Positions 8,937 to 23,126 of a stretch of DNA of 64,000 nucleotides are shown here, piece after piece. The notes beneath the pieces were generated by a model, which saw only the letters and a program-made list of their open reading frames with translations, ran no database searches and was not told where the DNA came from. The position numbers and the translations under genes are program-made. The stretch spans positions 1,081,353 through 1,145,352 of the forward strand of contig JAJVIF010000001.1 in the NCBI GenBank assembly GCA_022072165.1, read 5' to 3'. This DNA comes from a bacterium. Its GTDB lineage: Bacteria > JAJVIF01. Positions within the stretch are counted from its first letter, which is position 1, and every line of letters starts with the position of its first letter.

Positions 8937-9491
8937 GGGGGGATCTCGTGAAGTCGCATGGTAGCAGGGCTTCGGCGATCCCGCGCCAGGGGGTGAAGGG
9001 GGGAGGCTTCAGGAAGACTCCCGGAAAAAATTCTGAGGGCTCCCCTCGCTCCTCAGTCCAGCATTGAGTAGAAGTTTTATGGCCAAATCTGGATCAGATG
9101 TGCTGCCTTTTCCCCTGTTTTCGTGCAGCATCTATCACGTTCAGGTAACCAAAATAGCCGCTTTAGGAGACTTCCCATTTTGCTTGCCATGCCCGGGGAC
9201 CTCCCCGATGATGGGCTCCCCTGTCACCGACCTGGACTCGGGTTCAGCGTCGATCGCCAGGGACCCACGACAGTCGCCTTCGTCGCCTTCAGACTACCAG
9301 CCACTCCGGCTTGGGTCGCCACCCTCCCCCTCCCGCAAGCAGCGGACCGGGGAAAAAGGCTTGGAAGGATCGCTGTCGTGAGAGTTGGTGGGACCACCAC
9401 CACCTCCAGGCTGCCACTCGCACAACTTACGTCACGTTCGAGCACGGTCCCCACGGCGGGACAAATGACCAGGAAAGTGAGACCGCCAACA
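8937..9491 (+). other. Long intergenic leader before nrdJ
   Basis: About 555 bases without a gene I can support. The nrdJ frame happens to stay open back to 9123, but those codons show no family similarity. I looked for a cobalamin riboswitch and found no B12-box, and no NrdR-box palindrome. A short GGTGG/CCACC hairpin lies near 9385-9402. The region also divides the divergent MetE-like gene from nrdJ, so both promoters should be here. Confidence 0.5.
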
Positions 9492-12350
<2,859 letters not shown>

Positions 12351-14454: not shown

Positions 14455-14469
14455 TGCAGCCCTCCTGCG

Positions 14470-14478
14470 TGCTACGCT
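14470..14478 (+). promoter_or_regulatory. Putative extended -10 promoter of the riboswitch operon
   Basis: TGC then TACGCT, ending about 12 bases before the first paired bases of the riboswitch, which is the expected distance for an RNA starting near 14485. It matches the recurring TGnTACGCT element. Confidence 0.5.
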
Positions 14479-14489
14479 TCCGTCTCCAG

Positions 14490-14650
14490 TCCCCCCGCAG
14501 GACGGGAAGAGCCGTGCGATTCGGCCGCTGACCGGCAACTGTGATGGTGAGGCGTCGCCCCAGACCATGCCATCTGGACTCCGTCATAGGAGTCTGGAGA
14601 AGGCGGGGGCCGCTGTTGACCCGAAGCCAGGAGACCATCGGCGGGGGTAT
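14490..14650 (+). promoter_or_regulatory. Cobalamin riboswitch (B12-box aptamer)
   Basis: The hallmarks of the cobalamin aptamer appear in order. A closing stem pairs CCCCCGC (14492-14498) with GCGGGGG (14641-14647). Next come GGGAAgagCCGTG and the near-consensus CCGGCAACTGTGA (14532-14544). After a variable arm comes the B12 box GAAGCCAGGAGACC (14623-14636). Downstream, GGAAGC (14659-14664) can pair with GCTTCC (14691-14696), directly beside the GGAGG ribosome site of the first gene. Control is therefore probably at translation start; no U-rich terminator is seen. Binding of adenosyl- or another cobalamin would be expected to switch the operon off. Confidence 0.92.
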
Positions 14651-14705
14651 CACCACAGGGAAGCTGCGTGCCCGGGTCATTGCACGTCAGGCTTCCGGAG
14701 GCCGT

Positions 14706-16433
14706 ATGGCGTCCCTGGTCACAGCCCCCCCCTCAACCCTGCTCTTGCCGTTGAGTCTGCTGCTCCTCCTGGGCTGTCAGCCTGATGCCCCGTCCACCAA
14801 AACACCAGCCACCGCCTCTGCGGAGAAACCGGTCGTGAAGTTTGTCCGCGATGGCGTCGTCCTGCCGCACGGCAAAGGCTCCAGCGCGCTCATTGGCTCG
14901 GCCTGGAGCGCCATGCGTCCGCAGGGCGCGCTGTCACTCGGCCCGCAGCACGGGCTCTTTGTCCCCTGGCAGGCCACTCCTGGCGATCAGGTGTTCACCA
15001 AAGTGCAGGGACAGGTTGCCATCGGCACGGCCCCGATGAATCCCTCCCCGCTCCCCTTTATGCCGGTTCCCCTGGGCGACATCCGTCAGGAAGTCCTGCG
15101 TGGCAATCTCCCCGACTCCTGCGTGGCCCTCGCCGGGACCAGTGTGGCGGTCGGCACATTTACCGGACATCTCATCGGCCGTCAGATATTGGAGGATGCT
15201 GCGCCAGTCAGCAAAGCGCTCGTTACTGGCGGCATGATTAAGAGTGTCGCGTTTTCCCGGGAACCTGCGATGCGTCCATTTCCTCCCGATGGCAGCTACC
15301 AGCCACCGGTGGTCTTCGCCGGTGAGCAATCGACCCGCGGACGATTCCATGCACTGACCTGGCCTGCACTCACACCCCTATGGCAGATGGAAATCAGCAA
15401 GGACCTGGGTGAAGGTCGTCTCCCGGATGCGACCAACCCCTACGGCATCTACAGCTTGCCCGCCATCTTCCAGATCACCAGTCGCGAGGATGGAGTCTAC
15501 TTCGTCGGGGTCCACAGCCAGATCCTCCCCGATGGCACCAAGCGCAACCTCTCGCGACTCTACGCCTACACCAATGAGGGGGAGCGTCGCTGGGTCTGGC
15601 CTGCCGATGCCCCGGCGCCGGTGAACATCCTGCGCTTCGATGTCGAGGGTCCTCATCTGCTGCTGGGTGCGAGCCGCTCATTCGAGACGCAGCCGATACC
15701 AGAGTGGCCGGACCGTCAGCTGATCGTGCTCGATCGCTCATCGGGGCGGCAGGTGTCGCAGGCCACGATCCCGGCCCTGGCAGGATTCCAGGATGCCCCC
15801 TTTATCTGGCAGGGACTAAGTCTGGCTCCCGGCGGCAACCGGGGCGTCATCGGACTCTCTGACGGGCGCGGGATACTCCTGACGCTCCTCCAGGATCGCC
15901 TGGTCCTGCGGCAGACGCTGGACCTCGGGACACCGATCGAAATCGGGGGACTGCAGCTCACATCGCCCGTCGCCTACGCCATCTGCACTGAGACCACAGC
16001 CTTTTTGCACACCGGCGGCAGCAATATCCCCCCCGGGGGGAGTACCAGCGCTACAACGCCGCCGTCGCCGCATCCGGGCGCGAACACACTGACCGCCATT
16101 GATCTCGCCAGCGGGGAGGTGCAGTGGCAGCATCGGGAAGCGAGCGGCTTCAACGGGCTGGCCACCGATGGGCTTGGGCGGTGGCTAGTCACCACCACCG
16201 GCAATCCCACCTATGCGGACCAATCGGGGGCGTACAGCGTCCTGGTCTTCGACACGTATCGCACCGGTGCGGCGACCGACAAGATCGTCTTCAAGCAGCC
16301 GCTGCAGGGCGCGCCGTTCTTCAACTTCGCGATTTCGGCCGATGGCTTCTTCATCGCGGTGACTGAAACTCCGCTGGCGACCCCGGATGGCGTGAACATC
16401 GAGGGAGTGTGGCAAACCCATGTCTGGCATTAG
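14706..16433 (+). CDS. Beta-propeller surface lipoprotein, first gene of the B12-controlled operon
   Basis: A 575-residue lipoprotein. The ATG at 14706 has GGAGG four bases upstream and starts a signal peptide ending in the lipobox LLLGC, so it would be lipid-anchored outside the inner membrane. The mature chain is all beta, with repeated short strands. At least one PQQ/quinoprotein-type blade signature is clear (LTAIDLASGEVQWQH, about residues 460-474), and weaker blades include LIVLDRSSGRQV and RLYAYTNEGERRWVW. I read it as a beta propeller. Its position behind a cobalamin riboswitch and ahead of ECF transporter genes suggests capture or delivery of corrinoid, like the unrelated propeller lipoprotein BtuG of Bacteroides. 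That role is inference. It overlaps the next gene by 14 bp. Confidence 0.75.
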   Translation: MASLVTAPPSTLLLPLSLLLLLGCQPDAPSTKTPATASAEKPVVKFVRDGVVLPHGKGSSALIGSAWSAMRPQGALSLGPQHGLFVPWQATPGDQVFTKVQGQVAIGTAPMNPSPLPFMPVPLGDIRQEVLRGNLPDSCVALAGTSVAVGTFTGHLIGRQILEDAAPVSKALVTGGMIKSVAFSREPAMRPFPPDGSYQPPVVFAGEQSTRGRFHALTWPALTPLWQMEISKDLGEGRLPDATNPYGIYSLPAIFQITSREDGVYFVGVHSQILPDGTKRNLSRLYAYTNEGERRWVWPADAPAPVNILRFDVEGPHLLLGASRSFETQPIPEWPDRQLIVLDRSSGRQVSQATIPALAGFQDAPFIWQGLSLAPGGNRGVIGLSDGRGILLTLLQDRLVLRQTLDLGTPIEIGGLQLTSPVAYAICTETTAFLHTGGSNIPPGGSTSATTPPSPHPGANTLTAIDLASGEVQWQHREASGFNGLATDGLGRWLVTTTGNPTYADQSGAYSVLVFDTYRTGAATDKIVFKQPLQGAPFFNFAISADGFFIAVTETPLATPDGVNIEGVWQTHVWH

Positions 16434-18285
16434 CCGCCTCTTCCTGCGATGCGCGTTCCTCCTGCTGGCGATGCTTCTGGCATCGTGCGGACCTGCCGCC
16501 CCCCCACACCTGACAGCCACCATCGATGAAACAGGGCTGCATGTGGCGATCGATCCGCCATCGACCCTCACGCGACTGACGCTGGAGCAGGGCGCGATCC
16601 CGGTCCAGACCTGGGAGCAACTCCCGGTCAGCAGTCGCCTGGACCTCCCGGTCCCGATGACCCCTGGCGCAGGCTATACCCTCCGCGCCACCTGGCAGAA
16701 ACAGGATCTGCCGGTGCTGGAGTTGCGTGCACCCGAGGCCAGCGCGACCCCGCTCCGTATCGTCATCAGTCGCATTGGCGACGCCACGCCGCTGGTGCTC
16801 CTCCCTCCCGATGACACCATCCCGCTGGTCATGGCGCTGCCCCCTGGCGACAACAAGCTGCTGCTCGATGTCGATCTCGCCACACCGACCCCCGGAGTCG
16901 CAACACTCATCTACCCGGCAGCGCTCCTCCCCGAGCCACAGGGGGACCGGTCGCAGGTCCGGCGCATTCCCTTTGAACTCCAGGGACAGCGGTACACCGA
17001 AACCTTTCCAGTGCGTCTGCGAGGTACCCCGCAGGAACTCCGGCTGGTGGTGCAGTTTGAAGCAAACGGTGTACCTGGACTTCGCGAGTGGGAACGAATC
17101 GTGACCCTCGTCCCCCTGGATGTCGCGGCACTCCAGGGGAGTCTGACGCTGGATGAAGTCCGACTGCCCGCCCCGCCTCCCGGAACACCCCCCAGTCCGG
17201 TGATGGAATCCGCCATTCGGCTGCCGGATGCGACCTGGGAACGGGTAGGATCGCTCTTCGGGATTCCTGCACGGCAGATCCATGCCGACAGCCCCTACGC
17301 GATGGCTCAGTTGCGACTTACGAATCACGGCGAGGTCCCGCTGCCGATCATCTGCGCACTCGACGTCCGGGAAACCGGGATCGACATAAGCGCTGCCAGC
17401 TTCCAGCCCGCGGGCTGGCTCGCTACCGGGGGAGCTGATGCCCCGCAGGTCGTGCGGCATGTGATGCTGCCACCAGGGAGTGCGGAGGTGCTGCTGCCGT
17501 TGTATGTGCGACCGACAGTCCGGCCCGGCACCTACCACCTGGTCCTGACCGCGCATCTTGCGGGAAGTGAGTTGCCGTTGTTTATCCATACCCAGGATCT
17601 GGCGGTGACTCGCCCGGGGAGCCTGGTCTCCCTGACTCTGTTGGCGATGTGCCTGTTGACCGTCCTTACAGGTGCAGCACTCGCACTCACCTGGCAGCGA
17701 TTGCTGGCTTCCACCGATGCTGGCACGCTCATGAGCCTCGCACTCCTCGCTGCGCTGCTCGCCGGAGGTGGACTGACCATCGGTGCGGCCAATCTTGTCC
17801 TCGCTGCGGTGCTGGGACCGTTCAATGTCTTTGTCGGCGAAATGGCGGGAGAGGTCTGGACCGCCGGCATCATCACTATCGCCATCCGCCTGCGACCTCG
17901 TCCGGGGACCTTCACGCTCCTCTATCTGACCCAGGCCCTCTTGCGTGGCATCTTGGCGGGTCAGCTGCAGATTCTCGACCTGCTCATCTATGGCACGGCC
18001 ATCGGACTGACAGAACTGCTCCTCTGGGTGAGTGGTGTCACTGTGGGTGCCGCTGCGAAGTCGCGCTTCTCACTCACTTTCGGTCTGCGACTGATCCTGG
18101 CACTCGCTCTGGCGGATGCGGTCGGTACGTGGGTACAACTCGCCATCGGCATGGGGCTCTATCGACTCCAGTATGCCGAGTGGTACCTGGTGGCGACGGT
18201 CCTGATCACCGGCTTCGGATTCACGCTCCTGGGCGCTGCCGGAGCGCTGCCACTGAGCCGGGAATTGCGTCGCACGCATGGCTGA
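16420..18285 (+). CDS. Lipoprotein fused to an ECF S-component-like membrane domain
   Basis: A 621-residue protein of two parts. Residues 1-23 form a lipoprotein signal peptide (lipobox LLASC, Cys 23). Residues 24 to about 395 are a beta-rich, Pro-rich extracytoplasmic region resembling stacked Ig-like domains, for example TNHGEVPLPIICALDV and LPLYVRPTVRPGTYHLVL. From about 401 a membrane helix leads into six or so further helices (about 436-612). The Gly/Ala-rich segments VLGPFNVFVGEMAGEVWTAG and LIYGTAIGLTELLLWVSG recall S-components of energy-coupling factor importers. Position between a B12 riboswitch and EcfA/EcfT genes supports a substrate-binding role, most likely for a corrinoid or cobalt. 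The fusion to a lipidated outer domain is unusual. Confidence 0.65.
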   Translation: MSGISRLFLRCAFLLLAMLLASCGPAAPPHLTATIDETGLHVAIDPPSTLTRLTLEQGAIPVQTWEQLPVSSRLDLPVPMTPGAGYTLRATWQKQDLPVLELRAPEASATPLRIVISRIGDATPLVLLPPDDTIPLVMALPPGDNKLLLDVDLATPTPGVATLIYPAALLPEPQGDRSQVRRIPFELQGQRYTETFPVRLRGTPQELRLVVQFEANGVPGLREWERIVTLVPLDVAALQGSLTLDEVRLPAPPPGTPPSPVMESAIRLPDATWERVGSLFGIPARQIHADSPYAMAQLRLTNHGEVPLPIICALDVRETGIDISAASFQPAGWLATGGADAPQVVRHVMLPPGSAEVLLPLYVRPTVRPGTYHLVLTAHLAGSELPLFIHTQDLAVTRPGSLVSLTLLAMCLLTVLTGAALALTWQRLLASTDAGTLMSLALLAALLAGGGLTIGAANLVLAAVLGPFNVFVGEMAGEVWTAGIITIAIRLRPRPGTFTLLYLTQALLRGILAGQLQILDLLIYGTAIGLTELLLWVSGVTVGAAAKSRFSLTFGLRLILALALADAVGTWVQLAIGMGLYRLQYAEWYLVATVLITGFGFTLLGAAGALPLSRELRRTHG

Positions 18286-19702
18286 TCCCTCAGCCCCATT
18301 GCTGATCACCCAGGGCGGGTCAGTCCAGTTCCCTGGCACGAACGCGCCAAGTCTCACCTGGCCTGCGATGACCATCGCGCCGGGCGAGCGGGTCCTCATC
18401 GCCGGACCCACCGGCTGCGGAAAAACCACGTTCTGGTCGCTGCTGGCTGGACTCCTCCCGACATCGCATGTCACTGGTGCGGCGACCACGCTGCTACTGG
18501 GGACGTCCCTGCCACAGCTGGTACCGGCAGTCCATGGACGGGTGCTGGGGGCACTCTTCCAGACGCCTGCGGATCAGCTCCTCGCGACTTCATGTTCCGA
18601 AGAAATCGCGCTCGGCTTGCGACCGCTGGGGTTGACTGAATTGGCGATAAGGCATCGCGCTGCTGAAGCACTTAGCCAGGTCGGACTCCAGGGCTTAAGC
18701 GACCAGCCACCGGCACTCCTTTCCGGCGGGGAGCAACAACGCCTCTGCCTCGCCGCCGCCATCGCGCGTCAGCCTGCCTGGCTCCTCCTGGATGAGCCTT
18801 TTTCCCAGCTTGACCCGCAAGGCGCCCGGGCACTTGCGGAGTGCCTGAGGCGGATCACGACCGAGCTGCAGTGCGGGATTGTGCTGACCGAGCACCGACT
18901 CGCCCTCGCTTCCCGCTGCGCGGATCGTCTGCTCTGGCTGGAGTCCGGCGATATCCGAGCCGATGGCCCGGTCACCGCACTGCTTTCGCAACTGCCCCGG
19001 CCTGCTTTCAGGCCACGCGCTGTCGCACCATCGTCAGCCGCCCGGCGGGTCCAGGCCAGGCAGCTCGAAGTGCAGTTTGTCGATCAGCCCCGACCTGCCC
19101 TGCAACTGGACACGACGCTTTCACTGGACGGCCTGACTGTCCTGCTGGGCACGAATGGGTCCGGCAAATCCACTCTGCTTGCGCTGCTGTCGGGGGAGCA
19201 GCGACCCACCCGCGGCACCCTGCGTTGGCACGACTCATCTCGCCCCCGGGTAGCCCTCGTTCCCCAACAGACTGACTTCCGGCTGTTAGGCGGCACCATC
19301 GCGCAGGATCTCGCCCTCACCGGAGCCCCGAAGCGTGCCATCAGCGAAGTCGCGGCTGCCTTGCGGCTTCCGGACCTCGGGCTCCCCCCGCTGGCGATGA
19401 GTCGGGGGGAACGACTCCGGATCGCCCTCGCCGGCGCACTGTTGGAACAACCGGACCTGCTCCTCCTCGATGAACCCACCACCGGACAGGACGCCGATGC
19501 CCTGCAGCGGCTCCTGGAAATCCTGCAGTCCCTCACGATCCCCATCGTGCTGGCGACCCATGATCTCGACTTCGCCCGGGCAGCGGCTGATCAGGTCTGG
19601 CTATTGCGCGCTGGCACCCTGATAGCCACTGGTCCTGCCGACCTGCTGTCGGATGTCGCGCTCCTCGAGGACGTGGGATTGCAGGAGCCGGACGATGGCT
19701 GA
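18278..19702 (+). CDS. ECF transporter ATPase with two fused ABC domains
   Basis: A 474-residue protein that joins both ATP-binding subunits of an energy-coupling factor importer in one chain. Domain 1 has Walker A GPTGCGKT (43-50), signature LSGGEQQR (148-155) and Walker B LLLDEP (169-174), followed by an H-loop in LTEHR. Domain 2 has Walker A GTNGSGKST (291-299), signature MSRGERLR (374-381), a variant of LSGGQ, and Walker B LLLLDEP (394-400), with ATHDLD as H-loop. Both sites look able to bind ATP. It overlaps the genes on both sides by the same 8 bases (ATGGCTGA), so translation is tightly coupled. Confidence 0.92.
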   Translation: MADPSAPLLITQGGSVQFPGTNAPSLTWPAMTIAPGERVLIAGPTGCGKTTFWSLLAGLLPTSHVTGAATTLLLGTSLPQLVPAVHGRVLGALFQTPADQLLATSCSEEIALGLRPLGLTELAIRHRAAEALSQVGLQGLSDQPPALLSGGEQQRLCLAAAIARQPAWLLLDEPFSQLDPQGARALAECLRRITTELQCGIVLTEHRLALASRCADRLLWLESGDIRADGPVTALLSQLPRPAFRPRAVAPSSAARRVQARQLEVQFVDQPRPALQLDTTLSLDGLTVLLGTNGSGKSTLLALLSGEQRPTRGTLRWHDSSRPRVALVPQQTDFRLLGGTIAQDLALTGAPKRAISEVAAALRLPDLGLPPLAMSRGERLRIALAGALLEQPDLLLLDEPTTGQDADALQRLLEILQSLTIPIVLATHDLDFARAAADQVWLLRAGTLIATGPADLLSDVALLEDVGLQEPDDG

Positions 19703-20579
19703 CTGGACCGCCACCCTCCTGACTCCCGCACCGGCGACCGGCTGGTATGGCCGGTGCAGTGCCGCAGCCCGCCTCTGGACCGGCCTGCTCCTGGCGCTGC
19801 TGGTGCTCCTGATCGATCAGGTCCTGCTGCTGCTCCTGCTCGCGCTGGTGGTGGTGGGGCTCTCCCTGACAGTGCGATTGAGGCCGCTGCAGCGACGCGC
19901 TTTCTTCGGAGCCATTCTCCTTTTGCTCTGGGGAGTCATGGTATCCCAGGGGCTGTTTTATCAGCGTGTCCCCAGGGAAGCGCTGATCACGCTGATTCCC
20001 CCAGGCGACATCGCCGGCCTGCCCTTCGATGGGCTGCGCATCTATCGCGAGGGGCTGCTGTATGGCCTCAGTCAGAGTCTCCGCTTCGTGGTGCTGGTGG
20101 GGTATAGCCTGCTGGTGACCTTCACGACTCCCCTGCATGAACTGCTCGGAGGGCTGCGGTCACTGGGGATTCCCGGATCCCTTGCGCTGATGACGCTGAT
20201 CGCGCTTCGGAGTTTGCCGACCCTGGCGCGGGAGGTCCTCGAAGTCCAGCGAGCCATGCGCCTGCGCCGACTCACGGTGTGGCGTTTGGGACTGGCCGGG
20301 ATGTTGCGCCCGCTTCTCGACCGGACGCTCTGGCGTGCTACAACGCTGGCGGCAAGCTTGCAGCTACGGGGCATTGACCCCATCGCGCCGGACCTGGGAC
20401 CGATCCCGCGCATGTCTTTGCATGAACGATCTGGCCTGCTGCTACTGGGCGCGGTGGTGCTAGTCGCGTTGTGCGCCAGGGTGCTCCTGCTGCTCTATTG
20501 GCGGGGGTGGTGGTATGCCCCTGACTGGACCGGTCTCTATGCTTTCGCCAGCTGGCTCGCGTCCCCTATTCGCCTGTGA
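19695..20579 (+). CDS. ECF transporter transmembrane coupling protein (EcfT)
   Basis: A 294-residue membrane protein with about six hydrophobic helices (two before residue 60, others near 70-88, 127-145, 160-175 and 246-268). Between the last ones lie two basic cytoplasmic coupling helices, holding VQRAMRLRR (about 184-192) and ASLQLRG (about 220-226), at the places of the two Ala-Arg-Gly-type motifs by which EcfT docks on the ATPases. This is the T-component linking ATP hydrolysis by the preceding protein to toppling of the S-component. The ATG at 19695 overlaps the ATPase stop. It ends the riboswitch operon; no terminator is evident, and a TATACT at 20630 probably starts the next transcript. 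Confidence 0.88.
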   Translation: MADWTATLLTPAPATGWYGRCSAAARLWTGLLLALLVLLIDQVLLLLLLALVVVGLSLTVRLRPLQRRAFFGAILLLLWGVMVSQGLFYQRVPREALITLIPPGDIAGLPFDGLRIYREGLLYGLSQSLRFVVLVGYSLLVTFTTPLHELLGGLRSLGIPGSLALMTLIALRSLPTLAREVLEVQRAMRLRRLTVWRLGLAGMLRPLLDRTLWRATTLAASLQLRGIDPIAPDLGPIPRMSLHERSGLLLLGAVVLVALCARVLLLLYWRGWWYAPDWTGLYAFASWLASPIRL

Positions 20580-20672: not shown

Positions 20673-23126
20673 ATGCGCCGTCCGCTCCTCCACGCTTTCT
20701 GCTGCCTCCTGCTGACTTCGGTGGTGGCCTGTGCCCAGGCCAGCTCGCCCTTGCCAGAGAACTCGCGCGAAACCGCGACTCCACCTGTATCGACCCCGGT
20801 CGCTCAGGGTGTGCTCGGGATGTACCAGCTCTCGATTGCCCAGTCCGCAGGGACACCGGAAGTCTCATTGACCCCCTTGCGCGACTCGCAGGCGGTCGGC
20901 GACAGCTACCTGCTCGATGCCTCCGCCTATTTTTCCGGAGCGCTCTGCGGCGACTGTGTCCGGCTCTCGGGGATTCGGCTGGTCGATACCACAACCCTCG
21001 ACCTCGACTTCACTCTCCGCCATCCCTTCCCGCTCCCTGCCGCTTCTCCCGCACCGAAGGATCGACTGGACCTGCACATCTTTGATGTCACAGGCATTCT
21101 GGTCAGCGCCGAACCGGGAGGACCGTTCTTCCCCGCCAGCCAGACTCGCATCGCGCCGGTCCGGCTCCTCAATCCGCACGGCTACACAGGCGTACTCGAC
21201 CCCTGGCTGGATCGCATCTTCCCGACTCCCCAGGCCGATGCCCACCCATACCGTGTCTTTGCCATCGATGAGACGGCCGGCAACTTCGCTGCCGGGCATC
21301 CCACCGGCTTCGCGGACCTGGCCGCCCCCCGGGGCTTCAATGTCTTCGCGCAAGGGAGTGCTGCAACACAGACCTATCGACTGCGGATGCCCCCCGCCGG
21401 AACCTCGCTCAGCTTCAAACAGGATGCCCTGCTGGTCATCAGCGCCAGTTGGGGTCAGGGCGCTGGCAGTAAGCCAGAGCGGATGTCGCCAGTGTACCGG
21501 GCGCCGGAGTTCACCCAGAAAGCCCCCTGGAGCGTCACCGCGAACGTCACGGCGAACACACTCACCGGTGGCCAGGCCTCGTCCAGTGCAACCATTGGCG
21601 TCACGATCCGCGACTGGCAGTGGGAGGTACCCCTGGCCCCCACCTGGCCCGACCCGGACAGCCGGGGCACCATCAGGACCAGCAGCAATCCGGTGCAGGT
21701 GCTGTTGGAGGTGCCGGGGGTCACGAATGGCGCGGTCTCGGTTGATCCCACCACGTTCCCGGGAATCGGCCACACCCGGACAGGCCAAATCGACATCATG
21801 AATGCGTTGTCCGCAGCTGAGGGGACCTACATCGGTCTCGTGCAGGTCATCGACAGTCACGACAACGCCCTTGGCATCGCCCAGGATGATCCGATACCCG
21901 GCTTCCTCGGGCAGCTGCGGACGGCTGCGGTCTTTACAGTGACAGTAGCCCCTGGTGGTGGTCCTGGTCCCTTTGGCAGCGCGGTGCTGATCAGTGATCG
22001 TGATCTGAACGATATCGCCGGCCTCTTCAACACCAACATGCCCGAACTCGTCACCGATGGGAGCGATCTGTACCTTGGCTATCAGGGACCGGCAGATGAA
22101 GCGGTGGTGGCCCGCAGCACCAACTTCGGCAGCAGCTGGACCAATGTCGAGGTCTATCAGGGCGCTCCGGGAGCGTTCCTGGACCCCAGCATCGGCTGCG
22201 TCGCCAACAGCGATGATCTGCAGGTGGTGCTCGCCGCGCCGGATGACACCGGCACATACAGCAGCCGCTCGCTGAACAATGGCAGCTCCTGGAGTCCTTT
22301 GCTCAAGGTGCATGATGATCTGGGATCGCCCGACGACTCCCAGGCGATCACGAGCGGTACTGGCGCACCGGTCGCCATCTTCGGGACGATTCGGGAATCG
22401 GGCGGGACGCTTGAATTCGTGCTCGGCAGCGCGGTCTTCAACGGCACCCTCTGGTCCGAGCGCTCCCTCGTCACCGAGGCCCGTCCCGGCACCGGTCCGG
22501 GGCTGATCCGCATCGATGAGTCCCCCATGATTTACCGACTCTCCGATAACTCCCTGGTCTGCCTTTTCAGTTCCAACGAGCGGCCCATTGCCTCGCTGGG
22601 TGACGACACCATCAGCGAGCCTGTGGCTGCCAGAAGTCTCAATGAGGGCGTGAGCTGGCAGGACTGGACTTATGTCCGGCCCCTGGATGGCACCCGGACC
22701 ATCGAGACCCTCGCCAGTGCGCGACAGGGCGACACGCTCTACTTCGTGGAAGTCGCAGAAGACGGAACCCCGTCACTCCGCCGGAGCACCAATGGCGGAC
22801 TGGCCTGGCAAAGTCGCCCGCTCCCCACAGAACTGACGAGTGTCGAGAATGGCATCTGCGAGATCGCGGCGGGCCCGGATCAGACGCTGGCGCTCATCTG
22901 GGCGTCGGGTGGCGGGGGGAACGCGACACTGCTCTGCAGTCTCTCAGACAATGGCGGAGATACCTGGGGGACAGTCCTTCCGTGTGAGGATGATCCGGGG
23001 AATCTCTATACAGTCTACGCGGCCTCCGCAGTCTTTACGACCAACGGACGCCTGCATATTGCCTTCACGAGCAATCGACGCCCTGGAGGGCAGATTGGCT
23101 GGTACAGCGTCAGTCAGCAGCCTTAG
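20673..23126 (+). CDS. Large lipoprotein with BNR/Asp-box (sialidase-like) repeats
   Basis: An 817-residue exported protein. The ATG at 20673 has AGGTGA four bases upstream and starts a signal peptide with the lipobox-like SVVAC. The first 430 residues are beta-rich and unrecognised, with motifs such as DLDFTLRHPFPLP and LDLHIFDVTGILV. The C-terminal part carries five Asp-box signatures of the S-x-D/N-x-G-x-x-W type: STNFGSSW, SLNNGSSW, SLNEGVSW, STNGGLAW and SDNGGDTW. These build a six-bladed propeller as in sialidases. The catalytic arginine triad cannot be confirmed, so enzymatic sialidase activity is not claimed; a binding or structural surface role is equally possible. Its stop overlaps the convergent methyltransferase stop. 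Confidence 0.8.
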   Translation: MRRPLLHAFCCLLLTSVVACAQASSPLPENSRETATPPVSTPVAQGVLGMYQLSIAQSAGTPEVSLTPLRDSQAVGDSYLLDASAYFSGALCGDCVRLSGIRLVDTTTLDLDFTLRHPFPLPAASPAPKDRLDLHIFDVTGILVSAEPGGPFFPASQTRIAPVRLLNPHGYTGVLDPWLDRIFPTPQADAHPYRVFAIDETAGNFAAGHPTGFADLAAPRGFNVFAQGSAATQTYRLRMPPAGTSLSFKQDALLVISASWGQGAGSKPERMSPVYRAPEFTQKAPWSVTANVTANTLTGGQASSSATIGVTIRDWQWEVPLAPTWPDPDSRGTIRTSSNPVQVLLEVPGVTNGAVSVDPTTFPGIGHTRTGQIDIMNALSAAEGTYIGLVQVIDSHDNALGIAQDDPIPGFLGQLRTAAVFTVTVAPGGGPGPFGSAVLISDRDLNDIAGLFNTNMPELVTDGSDLYLGYQGPADEAVVARSTNFGSSWTNVEVYQGAPGAFLDPSIGCVANSDDLQVVLAAPDDTGTYSSRSLNNGSSWSPLLKVHDDLGSPDDSQAITSGTGAPVAIFGTIRESGGTLEFVLGSAVFNGTLWSERSLVTEARPGTGPGLIRIDESPMIYRLSDNSLVCLFSSNERPIASLGDDTISEPVAARSLNEGVSWQDWTYVRPLDGTRTIETLASARQGDTLYFVEVAEDGTPSLRRSTNGGLAWQSRPLPTELTSVENGICEIAAGPDQTLALIWASGGGGNATLLCSLSDNGGDTWGTVLPCEDDPGNLYTVYAASAVFTTNGRLHIAFTSNRRPGGQIGWYSVSQQP

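What the first reader, a model, noticed from the sequence alone, without database searches (positions are those of the whole stretch)
14470..20579. B12-riboswitch-controlled ECF importer with a beta-propeller lipoprotein and a lipidated S-component fusion
A cobalamin riboswitch precedes four overlapping genes: beta-propeller lipoprotein, lipoprotein fused to an S-component-like membrane domain, double ATPase, EcfT. Known ECF corrinoid importers have a small bare S-component, and the known propeller lipoprotein for B12 (BtuG) belongs to an outer-membrane system of Bacteroides. This set suggests a new layout in which a surface propeller hands corrinoid to a lipidated outer domain of the S-component. 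The substrate is inferred from the riboswitch; cobalt or a precursor is also possible.
Basis: partly seen in the sequence, partly recalled or inferred. Interest (0 to 1): 0.92.

Follow-up and report, generated by a model that had tools for sequence, protein, structure and literature searches.

The report
Lipoprotein-fused ECF vitamin B12 importer
Next to a vitamin-B12-sensing RNA switch lies a four-gene membrane pump, most likely for B12-type molecules, whose capture subunit carries a large, lipid-anchored outer domain; the same subunit recurs in unrelated bacteria and in methane-making archaea but matches no protein family in the libraries searched.

Summary
A cobalamin riboswitch (14467-14653) precedes four overlapping genes: a PQQ-type propeller lipoprotein, a lipoprotein with beta-sandwich domains and a 1+6-helix membrane part, a fused EcfA-EcfA, and EcfT.

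The second protein defines a family without a confident Pfam, NCBIfam or PDB match. It occurs in 70 of 85 Candidatus Poribacteria genomes, 14 archaeal (Methanosarcinales-type) loci and two further bacterial lineages; in the archaea and those two it also sits beside EcfA-A and EcfT.

Substrate: 16 of 16 scanned Poribacterial loci have a cobalamin riboswitch. L167 has two, followed by a TonB-B12-type receptor, BtuF-like protein, S-fusion, EcfA-A, EcfT, propeller and TonB. Eighteen of 18 tested carriers have EcfT; none has corrin-ring CbiC. The window genome lacks BtuC, which its ECF-lacking relatives have. A corrinoid, not free cobalt, is the best substrate in these bacteria.

Corrections: the window propeller is PQQ/BamB-like, not BtuG-like (the Poribacterial one is BtuG-related). 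Hand-over from propeller to outer domain is untested. S-component membership rests mainly on context and topology; sequence matches are borderline. Archaeal operons include CobN, so the substrate there is open.

New variant of a known kind.

The parts
14467..14653 (+). Cobalamin riboswitch aptamer (RF00174)
   Evidence: cmscan 59.8 bits, E 2.6e-12, full-length match; one of only three in the genome
14706..16433 (+). PQQ/BamB-like beta-propeller lipoprotein (575 aa, P0001)
   Evidence: lipobox LLGC, Cys at residue 24; AF2 pLDDT 80, Foldseek hits include PQQ-alcohol dehydrogenase, BamB, WD40; homologous to the Poribacterial operon propeller, E 3e-30
16420..18285 (+). Lipoprotein fused to S-component-like membrane domain (621 aa, P0002)
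   Evidence: lipobox LASC, Cys at residue 23; no Pfam, NCBIfam or PDB match; family found in Poribacteria, Methanosarcinales and two other lineages
16507..17613 (+). Extracytoplasmic beta-sandwich (Ig/FN3/NEW3-like) region of P0002, residues about 30-398
   Evidence: AF2 secondary structure; Foldseek hits Ig/FN-type proteins; PF10633 NEW3 in 6 family members, best E 1.4e-4
17620..17691 (+). Linker/anchor transmembrane helix of P0002, residues 401-424
   Evidence: AF2 helix and hydropathy peak
17719..18279 (+). Six-helix S-component-like core of P0002, residues 434-620; invariant E532, R582, W588, Y589 and near-invariant E478, D566
   Evidence: AF2 helices, hydropathy and charge pattern; conservation over 31 members; PF09819 family matches 4 of 31 members, best E 0.0022
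18278..19702 (+). Fused EcfA-EcfA ATPase (474 aa)
   Evidence: two ABC_tran domains; best NCBIfam models ECF_ATPase_2, cbiO, ECF_ATPase_1
19695..20579 (+). EcfT/CbiQ-family transmembrane coupling protein (294 aa)
   Evidence: PF02361 E 2.5e-22; 76-121 bits to EcfT of other S-fusion lineages against 44 bits to a CbiQ from a genome lacking the fusion
9123..12350 (+). Context: adenosylcobalamin-dependent ribonucleotide reductase NrdJ (start uncertain), a B12 consumer
   Evidence: NF005122, 1440 bits, above cut-off
20673..23126 (+). Downstream lipoprotein; possible but unproven operon member
   Evidence: 93 bp after ecfT; one weak terminator-like site inside the end of ecfT; its N-terminal domain is shared with lipoproteins under the genome's other two B12 riboswitches

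Best explanation
The operon encodes a dedicated ECF-type importer for corrinoids (cobalamin or close relatives), switched off by its end product through the riboswitch. Protein 2 is the substrate-binding S-component: its C-terminal six-helix core is expected to bind the corrinoid, associate with EcfT and topple to release the ligand inside, driven by the fused EcfA-EcfA. Its beta-sandwich region, tethered by an N-terminal lipid and an extra transmembrane helix, lies outside the inner membrane. With the propeller lipoprotein it most likely captures or docks corrinoid (or a delivery protein such as BtuF) coming from an outer-membrane TonB receptor and presents it to the core. The module replaces BtuCD. 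Shown: genes, riboswitch, conserved synteny, co-occurrence with EcfT, absence of corrin-ring synthesis and of BtuC in this genome. Predicted: domain layout and topology. Inferred: S-component fold, corrinoid specificity, toppling mechanism. Speculative: that the propeller binds corrinoid or hands it to the outer domain.
For: Riboswitch. Same S-fusion adjacent to EcfA-A and EcfT in the window, 14 archaeal loci, L166 and L167. Cobalamin riboswitch in 16 of 16 scanned Poribacterial loci. L167: two tandem cobalamin riboswitches, then a TonB receptor whose best family is TonB-B12 (162 bits, under its cut-off), BtuF-like protein, S-fusion, EcfA-A, EcfT, propeller, TonB, and no FecCD match over cut-off in that genome. 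EcfT present in 18 of 18 tested carriers against 2 of 9 non-carriers; Poribacterial EcfT is close to archaeal EcfT (164-211 bits) while CbiQ from non-carriers scores at most 77; the one EcfA-A/EcfT locus read in full has no S gene beside it. CbiC absent in 18 of 18 carriers; BtuC-type FecCD absent in the window genome but strong in its three ECF-lacking class relatives and in all six non-carrier Poribacteria tested. B12-dependent NrdJ nearby. 1+6 helix topology and a borderline S-component family match.
Against: Sequence evidence that the core is an S-component is weak: PF09819 matches only 4 of 31 members (best E 0.0022) and not the window protein; profile comparison with S-components was inconclusive; the Foldseek top list was dominated by the beta-sandwich domains. 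Six of the 17 tested Poribacterial carriers also have a strong FecCD permease, so replacement of BtuCD is not universal. In archaea CobN is in the operon and no riboswitch is found, so the substrate there may differ. No binding or transport data exist.
Confidence: 0.78

Rival explanations
1. It is a cobalt (metal) ECF importer of the CbiMNQO type with accessory extracellular proteins.
For: EcfT scores to the CbiQ (cobalt) family; archaeal homologues sit next to cobN, as does L166 together with ChlI/D-like subunits.
Against: No CbiM or CbiN match in protein 2. Carriers among the tested bacteria lack CbiC, so cannot build a corrin ring to put cobalt in. One locus encodes a B12-type TonB receptor and a BtuF-like protein in the same operon.
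Confidence: 0.08
2. It is a wider tetrapyrrole importer: cobalamin in riboswitch-bearing bacteria, another cyclic tetrapyrrole (heme, metal-free or other corrinoid) in the CobN-linked archaeal and L166 versions, with CobN acting as a chelatase or de-chelatase after import. This extends, rather than contradicts, the main reading for the window.
For: CobN is in the archaeal operon and next to the TonB receptor of L166; the L166 receptor scores best to heme receptors (222 bits). A CobN homologue, HmuS, is a heme de-chelatase, and the role of archaeal homologues is stated to be unclear (PMC12583661).
Against: No direct substrate evidence for the CobN-linked versions. Methanogens make B12 themselves (PMC2667541), which fits neither simple need nor exclusion of corrinoid salvage.
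Confidence: 0.3
3. The membrane part is not an S-component but an accessory membrane protein, and the true S-component lies elsewhere in each genome.
For: Weak sequence link to S-components; unusual size and domain content.
Against: It is the only membrane-permease-like protein encoded beside EcfA-A/EcfT in the window and L167; 1+6 helix topology fits; no PF12822 or PF09819 S-component was found in the window genome; EcfT co-occurs with it.
Confidence: 0.12

Closest known systems
ECF-CbrT, vitamin B12 ECF transporter of Lactobacillus delbrueckii (PMC5997447)
   Same: ATP-driven ECF module plus one membrane S-component for cobalamin/cobinamide; first predicted from gene context and absence of BtuCDF, with nrdJ in its cluster, the same logic as here
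   Different: CbrT shares its ECF module with other S-components. Here the S-protein is fused to a lipidated beta-sandwich region and accompanied by propeller proteins, and EcfA-A is a single fused protein.
BtuM, small vitamin B12 uptake protein (PMC6072759)
   Same: membrane protein predicted to take up B12 without BtuCD
   Different: described as a single membrane protein; here an EcfA-A/EcfT module and a large outer domain are encoded with it
BtuB-BtuG surface system of gut Bacteroides (PMC10404256, PMC6143338)
   Same: B12 locus with a propeller lipoprotein; the Poribacterial operon propeller is profile-related to BtuG1-3
   Different: the window propeller is PQQ/BamB-like; Bacteroides loci carry btuCD for the inner membrane (PMC13398666), here an ECF module does that step
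BtuCDF
   Same: same inferred task, inner-membrane corrinoid import; a BtuF-like protein is even kept in L167
   Different: different permease and ATPase architecture; BtuC absent in the window genome
CbiMNQO / NikMNQO metal ECF importers
   Same: EcfT and EcfA subunits are related
   Different: no CbiM/CbiN; carriers lack corrin ring synthesis

Membership tests
ECF-type ABC transporter | EcfT transmembrane coupling protein | tested here: met
   PF02361 E 2.5e-22, over the curated cut-off
ECF-type ABC transporter | Two ABC ATPase domains of EcfA type | tested here: met
   fused double ATPase; best models ECF_ATPase_2 / cbiO / ECF_ATPase_1, though below equivalog cut-offs
ECF-type ABC transporter | Membrane S-component with six-helix fold | tested here: inconclusive
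   1+6 helices predicted; PF09819 in 4 of 31 members, best E 0.0022; hhalign inconclusive; fold search dominated by outer domains
ECF-type ABC transporter | Gene linkage or co-occurrence of S with EcfA/T | tested here: met
   adjacent in window, archaea, L166, L167; EcfT in 18 of 18 carriers
Vitamin B12 (corrinoid) importer | Cobalamin-responsive control element | tested here: met
   RF00174 in window, 16 of 16 Poribacterial loci and twice in L167; none in archaea or L166
Vitamin B12 (corrinoid) importer | Binds and transports corrinoid | not testable with these tools
   needs binding and uptake assays
BtuG propeller family | Profile relation of the window propeller to BtuG | tested here: not met
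   P0001 family matches WD40/PQQ/BamB chains, no BtuG; no PF16819 match
BtuG propeller family | Profile relation of the Poribacterial operon propeller to BtuG | tested here: met
   BtuG1 chain 8blw_B E 5e-18, BtuG3 8okv E 1.5e-10, BtuG2 8bmx E 2.1e-10; the alignment included the window genome's P0009 at 21% identity
BtuCDF | FecCD/BtuC permease in the window genome | tested here: not met
   no PF01032 match in G000
CbiMNQO cobalt importer | CbiM S-component in the operon | tested here: not met
   no Pfam or NCBIfam match of P0002 up to E 1

The most novel reading that the evidence does not exclude
A previously unrecognised family of ECF S-components that carry their own tethered extracellular receptor domain and work with propeller lipoproteins, spread across at least four bacterial lineages and methanogenic archaea, importing corrinoids in the bacteria and possibly another tetrapyrrole in the CobN-linked versions.
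Probability: 0.6. Interest if true: 0.85.

Novelty: new variant of a known kind. Interest (0 to 1): 0.72.

Why it matters
About a tenth of organisms inferred to take up B12 lacked BtuFCD in a 2009 survey, so other import systems were expected (PMC2667541). This family offers a concrete candidate for Poribacteria and several other lineages. S-components are usually small bare membrane proteins (my knowledge of the field); one with a tethered outer receptor and a propeller partner would show how an ECF importer can be coupled to a TonB receptor across a periplasm. The archaeal version gives an operon context for archaeal CobN homologues, whose use is stated to be unclear (PMC12583661).

Tried and rejected
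Cobalt importer: rejected as the main reading for bacteria because corrin-ring synthesis is missing. BtuG identity of the window propeller: rejected. Earlier-predicted archaeal cobalt transporter CbtX: considered, but it is COG3366, a hypothetical transmembrane protein of another description (PMC545781). Direct sequence search of protein 2, its family profile and its membrane domain in the PDB found nothing. Foldseek of the whole P0002 model was swamped by Ig/FN-like hits and cannot judge the membrane core. hhalign of the core against S-component sequences scored better than against unrelated membrane proteins on average (one-sided p 0.02) but with no significant single match. An attempt to deepen the PF09819 profile failed: one genome in the chosen phylum and no plasmid hit. 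RNA folding of the riboswitch region is no stronger than shuffles (z -0.12) and did not show a clear expression platform. The EcfT tree is too unsure for deep claims: the window branch is very long.

Full report
Observation. The window holds a full-length cobalamin riboswitch at 14467-14653 (+), 59.8 bits, followed 52 bases later by four + strand genes whose ends overlap: 14706-16433, 16420-18285, 18278-19702 and 19695-20579. The third gene encodes two fused ABC ATPase domains nearest to ECF ATPase models and the fourth a CbiQ/EcfT protein (PF02361, 80 bits). The first two products carry lipoboxes.

Protein 1. AlphaFold2 with 26 family sequences gives a propeller (pLDDT 80). Foldseek and profile searches place it with WD40, PQQ-dependent dehydrogenase and BamB propellers. 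No BtuG structure appears in the profile search, so the BtuG comparison does not hold for this protein.

Protein 2. No Pfam, NCBIfam or PDB match. The AlphaFold2 model (35 sequences, pLDDT 72, pTM 0.50, so domain packing is unsure) shows strands up to residue 397, then helices 401-424 and 434-620. Hydropathy and the charge pattern fit one anchor helix plus six helices (the topology assignment is my reading). Foldseek hits are Ig/FN-type domains, and six relatives match the NEW3 domain. In the membrane part the only transporter family that appears is PF09819, in 4 of 31 members, best E 0.0022; from my own knowledge, PF09819 members are YkoE-like S-components. Profile-profile tests were suggestive at best. 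Invariant polar or aromatic residues over 31 members are E532, R582, W588 and Y589.

The family elsewhere. Among 59 sampled relatives one, G042, has a homologue besides the window genome. Within its phylum 70 of 85 genomes do, and matching records are named Candidatus Poribacteria. A scan of 84,980 species genomes with the family alignment returned 73 loci: 59 Poribacteria and 14 archaeal, named Methanosarcina, Methanococcoides, Methanosarcinales or (one) Euryarchaeota. A sample of 385 bacterial genomes added two more lineages, G224 and G342. The family is thus real, old or mobile, and patchy.

Neighbourhoods. Poribacteria: riboswitch, BtuG/YncE-related propeller (often with a dockerin-like end), S-fusion, then a homologue of the window propeller. 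The riboswitch was found in all 16 loci scanned. Archaea: two propeller lipoproteins, CobN, S-protein, fused EcfA-A, EcfT, ABC-2 transporter; no riboswitch in eight loci scanned. L167 (G224): two tandem cobalamin riboswitches, TonB receptor with TonB-B12 as best model, BtuF-like protein, S-fusion, EcfA-A, EcfT, propeller, TonB. L166 (G342): CobN, TonB receptor, ABC-2, propeller, S-fusion, EcfA-A, EcfT, ChlD/ChlI-like cobaltochelatase subunits.

The energising module. Every tested carrier (18 of 18) has one CbiQ/EcfT; of nine non-carriers two have one. In Poribacteria EcfT lies away from the S-fusion, but these EcfT proteins score 164-211 bits to the archaeal operon EcfT, while CbiQ from non-carrier Poribacteria scores at most 77. 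In five of ten inspected loci the fused EcfA-A is beside or near EcfT, and in the one read in full there is no S gene next to them. The genomes within each group are related, so these counts are not independent.

Substrate. CbiC, needed for the corrin ring, is absent in all 18 carriers tested, so free cobalt would be of no use for B12 there. The window genome lacks FecCD permeases altogether while its three class relatives, which lack this ECF system, have them; all six non-carrier Poribacteria tested have strong FecCD, and 6 of 17 carrier Poribacteria do. G224 has none over the cut-off, G342 has a strong one. The window genome needs B12: NrdJ lies upstream. It has a single TonB receptor, 22 kb outside the window, whose best model is again TonB-B12. 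The same kind of reasoning predicted CbrT before it was proven (PMC5997447). I therefore commit to corrinoid import (confidence 0.78); cobinamide or other cobamides cannot be separated from cobalamin.

Mechanism. Expected steps: TonB receptor across the outer membrane, capture by propeller and/or the tethered outer region, loading of the six-helix core, association with EcfT, ATP-driven release inside. Only the gene set is shown. Whether the lipoproteins sit at the outer or inner membrane is unknown. Archaeal S-proteins lack a lipobox but keep a signal-peptide-like start, and there the propellers are lipoproteins, so the constant feature is an extracytoplasmic domain rather than the lipid.

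Novelty. Within the library searched I found no paper describing such an S-component or this operon (most subscription papers and preprints are not held). It works like an ECF vitamin importer, and EcfT and EcfA meet the family test; the S-component fold is the open item. I call it a new variant of a known kind. The CobN-linked archaeal version is the most open question, because the role of archaeal CobN homologues is unclear (PMC12583661).

Noticed in passing
L005 3768-7344 (G000 contig C2): A second B12 riboswitch of this genome precedes a roughly 740-aa lipoprotein (C-terminal part weakly like LIC_13355 lipoproteins) and an overlapping YncE-like propeller lipoprotein (P0009), which was aligned with the BtuG-related Poribacterial family.
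   Followed up: partly
L004 5598-8403 (-) (G000 contig C3): The third B12 riboswitch precedes an 807-aa lipoprotein whose C-terminal part is weakly similar to the propeller P0009; no Pfam or NCBIfam match.
   Followed up: partly
window 20673-23126; L004 2026-4476 and 5598-8021; L005 3995-6217: A roughly 400-residue N-terminal domain without any Pfam match is shared (26-32% identity) by lipoproteins under two B12 riboswitches, by the gene just downstream of this operon and by one further lipoprotein; probably a general surface module.
   Followed up: partly
L185 5795-7867 (-) (G000:C1, about 22 kb before the window): The only TonB-dependent receptor found in the genome; best model TonB-B12 (135 bits, under cut-off). 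None of the genome's three B12 riboswitches lies there.
   Followed up: partly
L059 3781-7605 and the same place in the other archaeal loci: CobN homologue conserved inside the archaeal ECF/propeller operon, an operon context for archaeal CobN proteins of unclear use.
   Followed up: partly
L166 3026-6078 and 13778-18998 (-): CobN, ChlD/ChlI-like cobaltochelatase subunits and a TonB receptor that scores best to heme receptors flank the same ECF set; suggests metal insertion into or removal from an imported tetrapyrrole.
   Followed up: no
L008 6434-7795: The Poribacterial BtuG-related propeller carries a C-terminal dockerin-like domain (PF00404), unusual for a B12-binding protein; it may anchor the propeller on the cell surface.
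   Followed up: no
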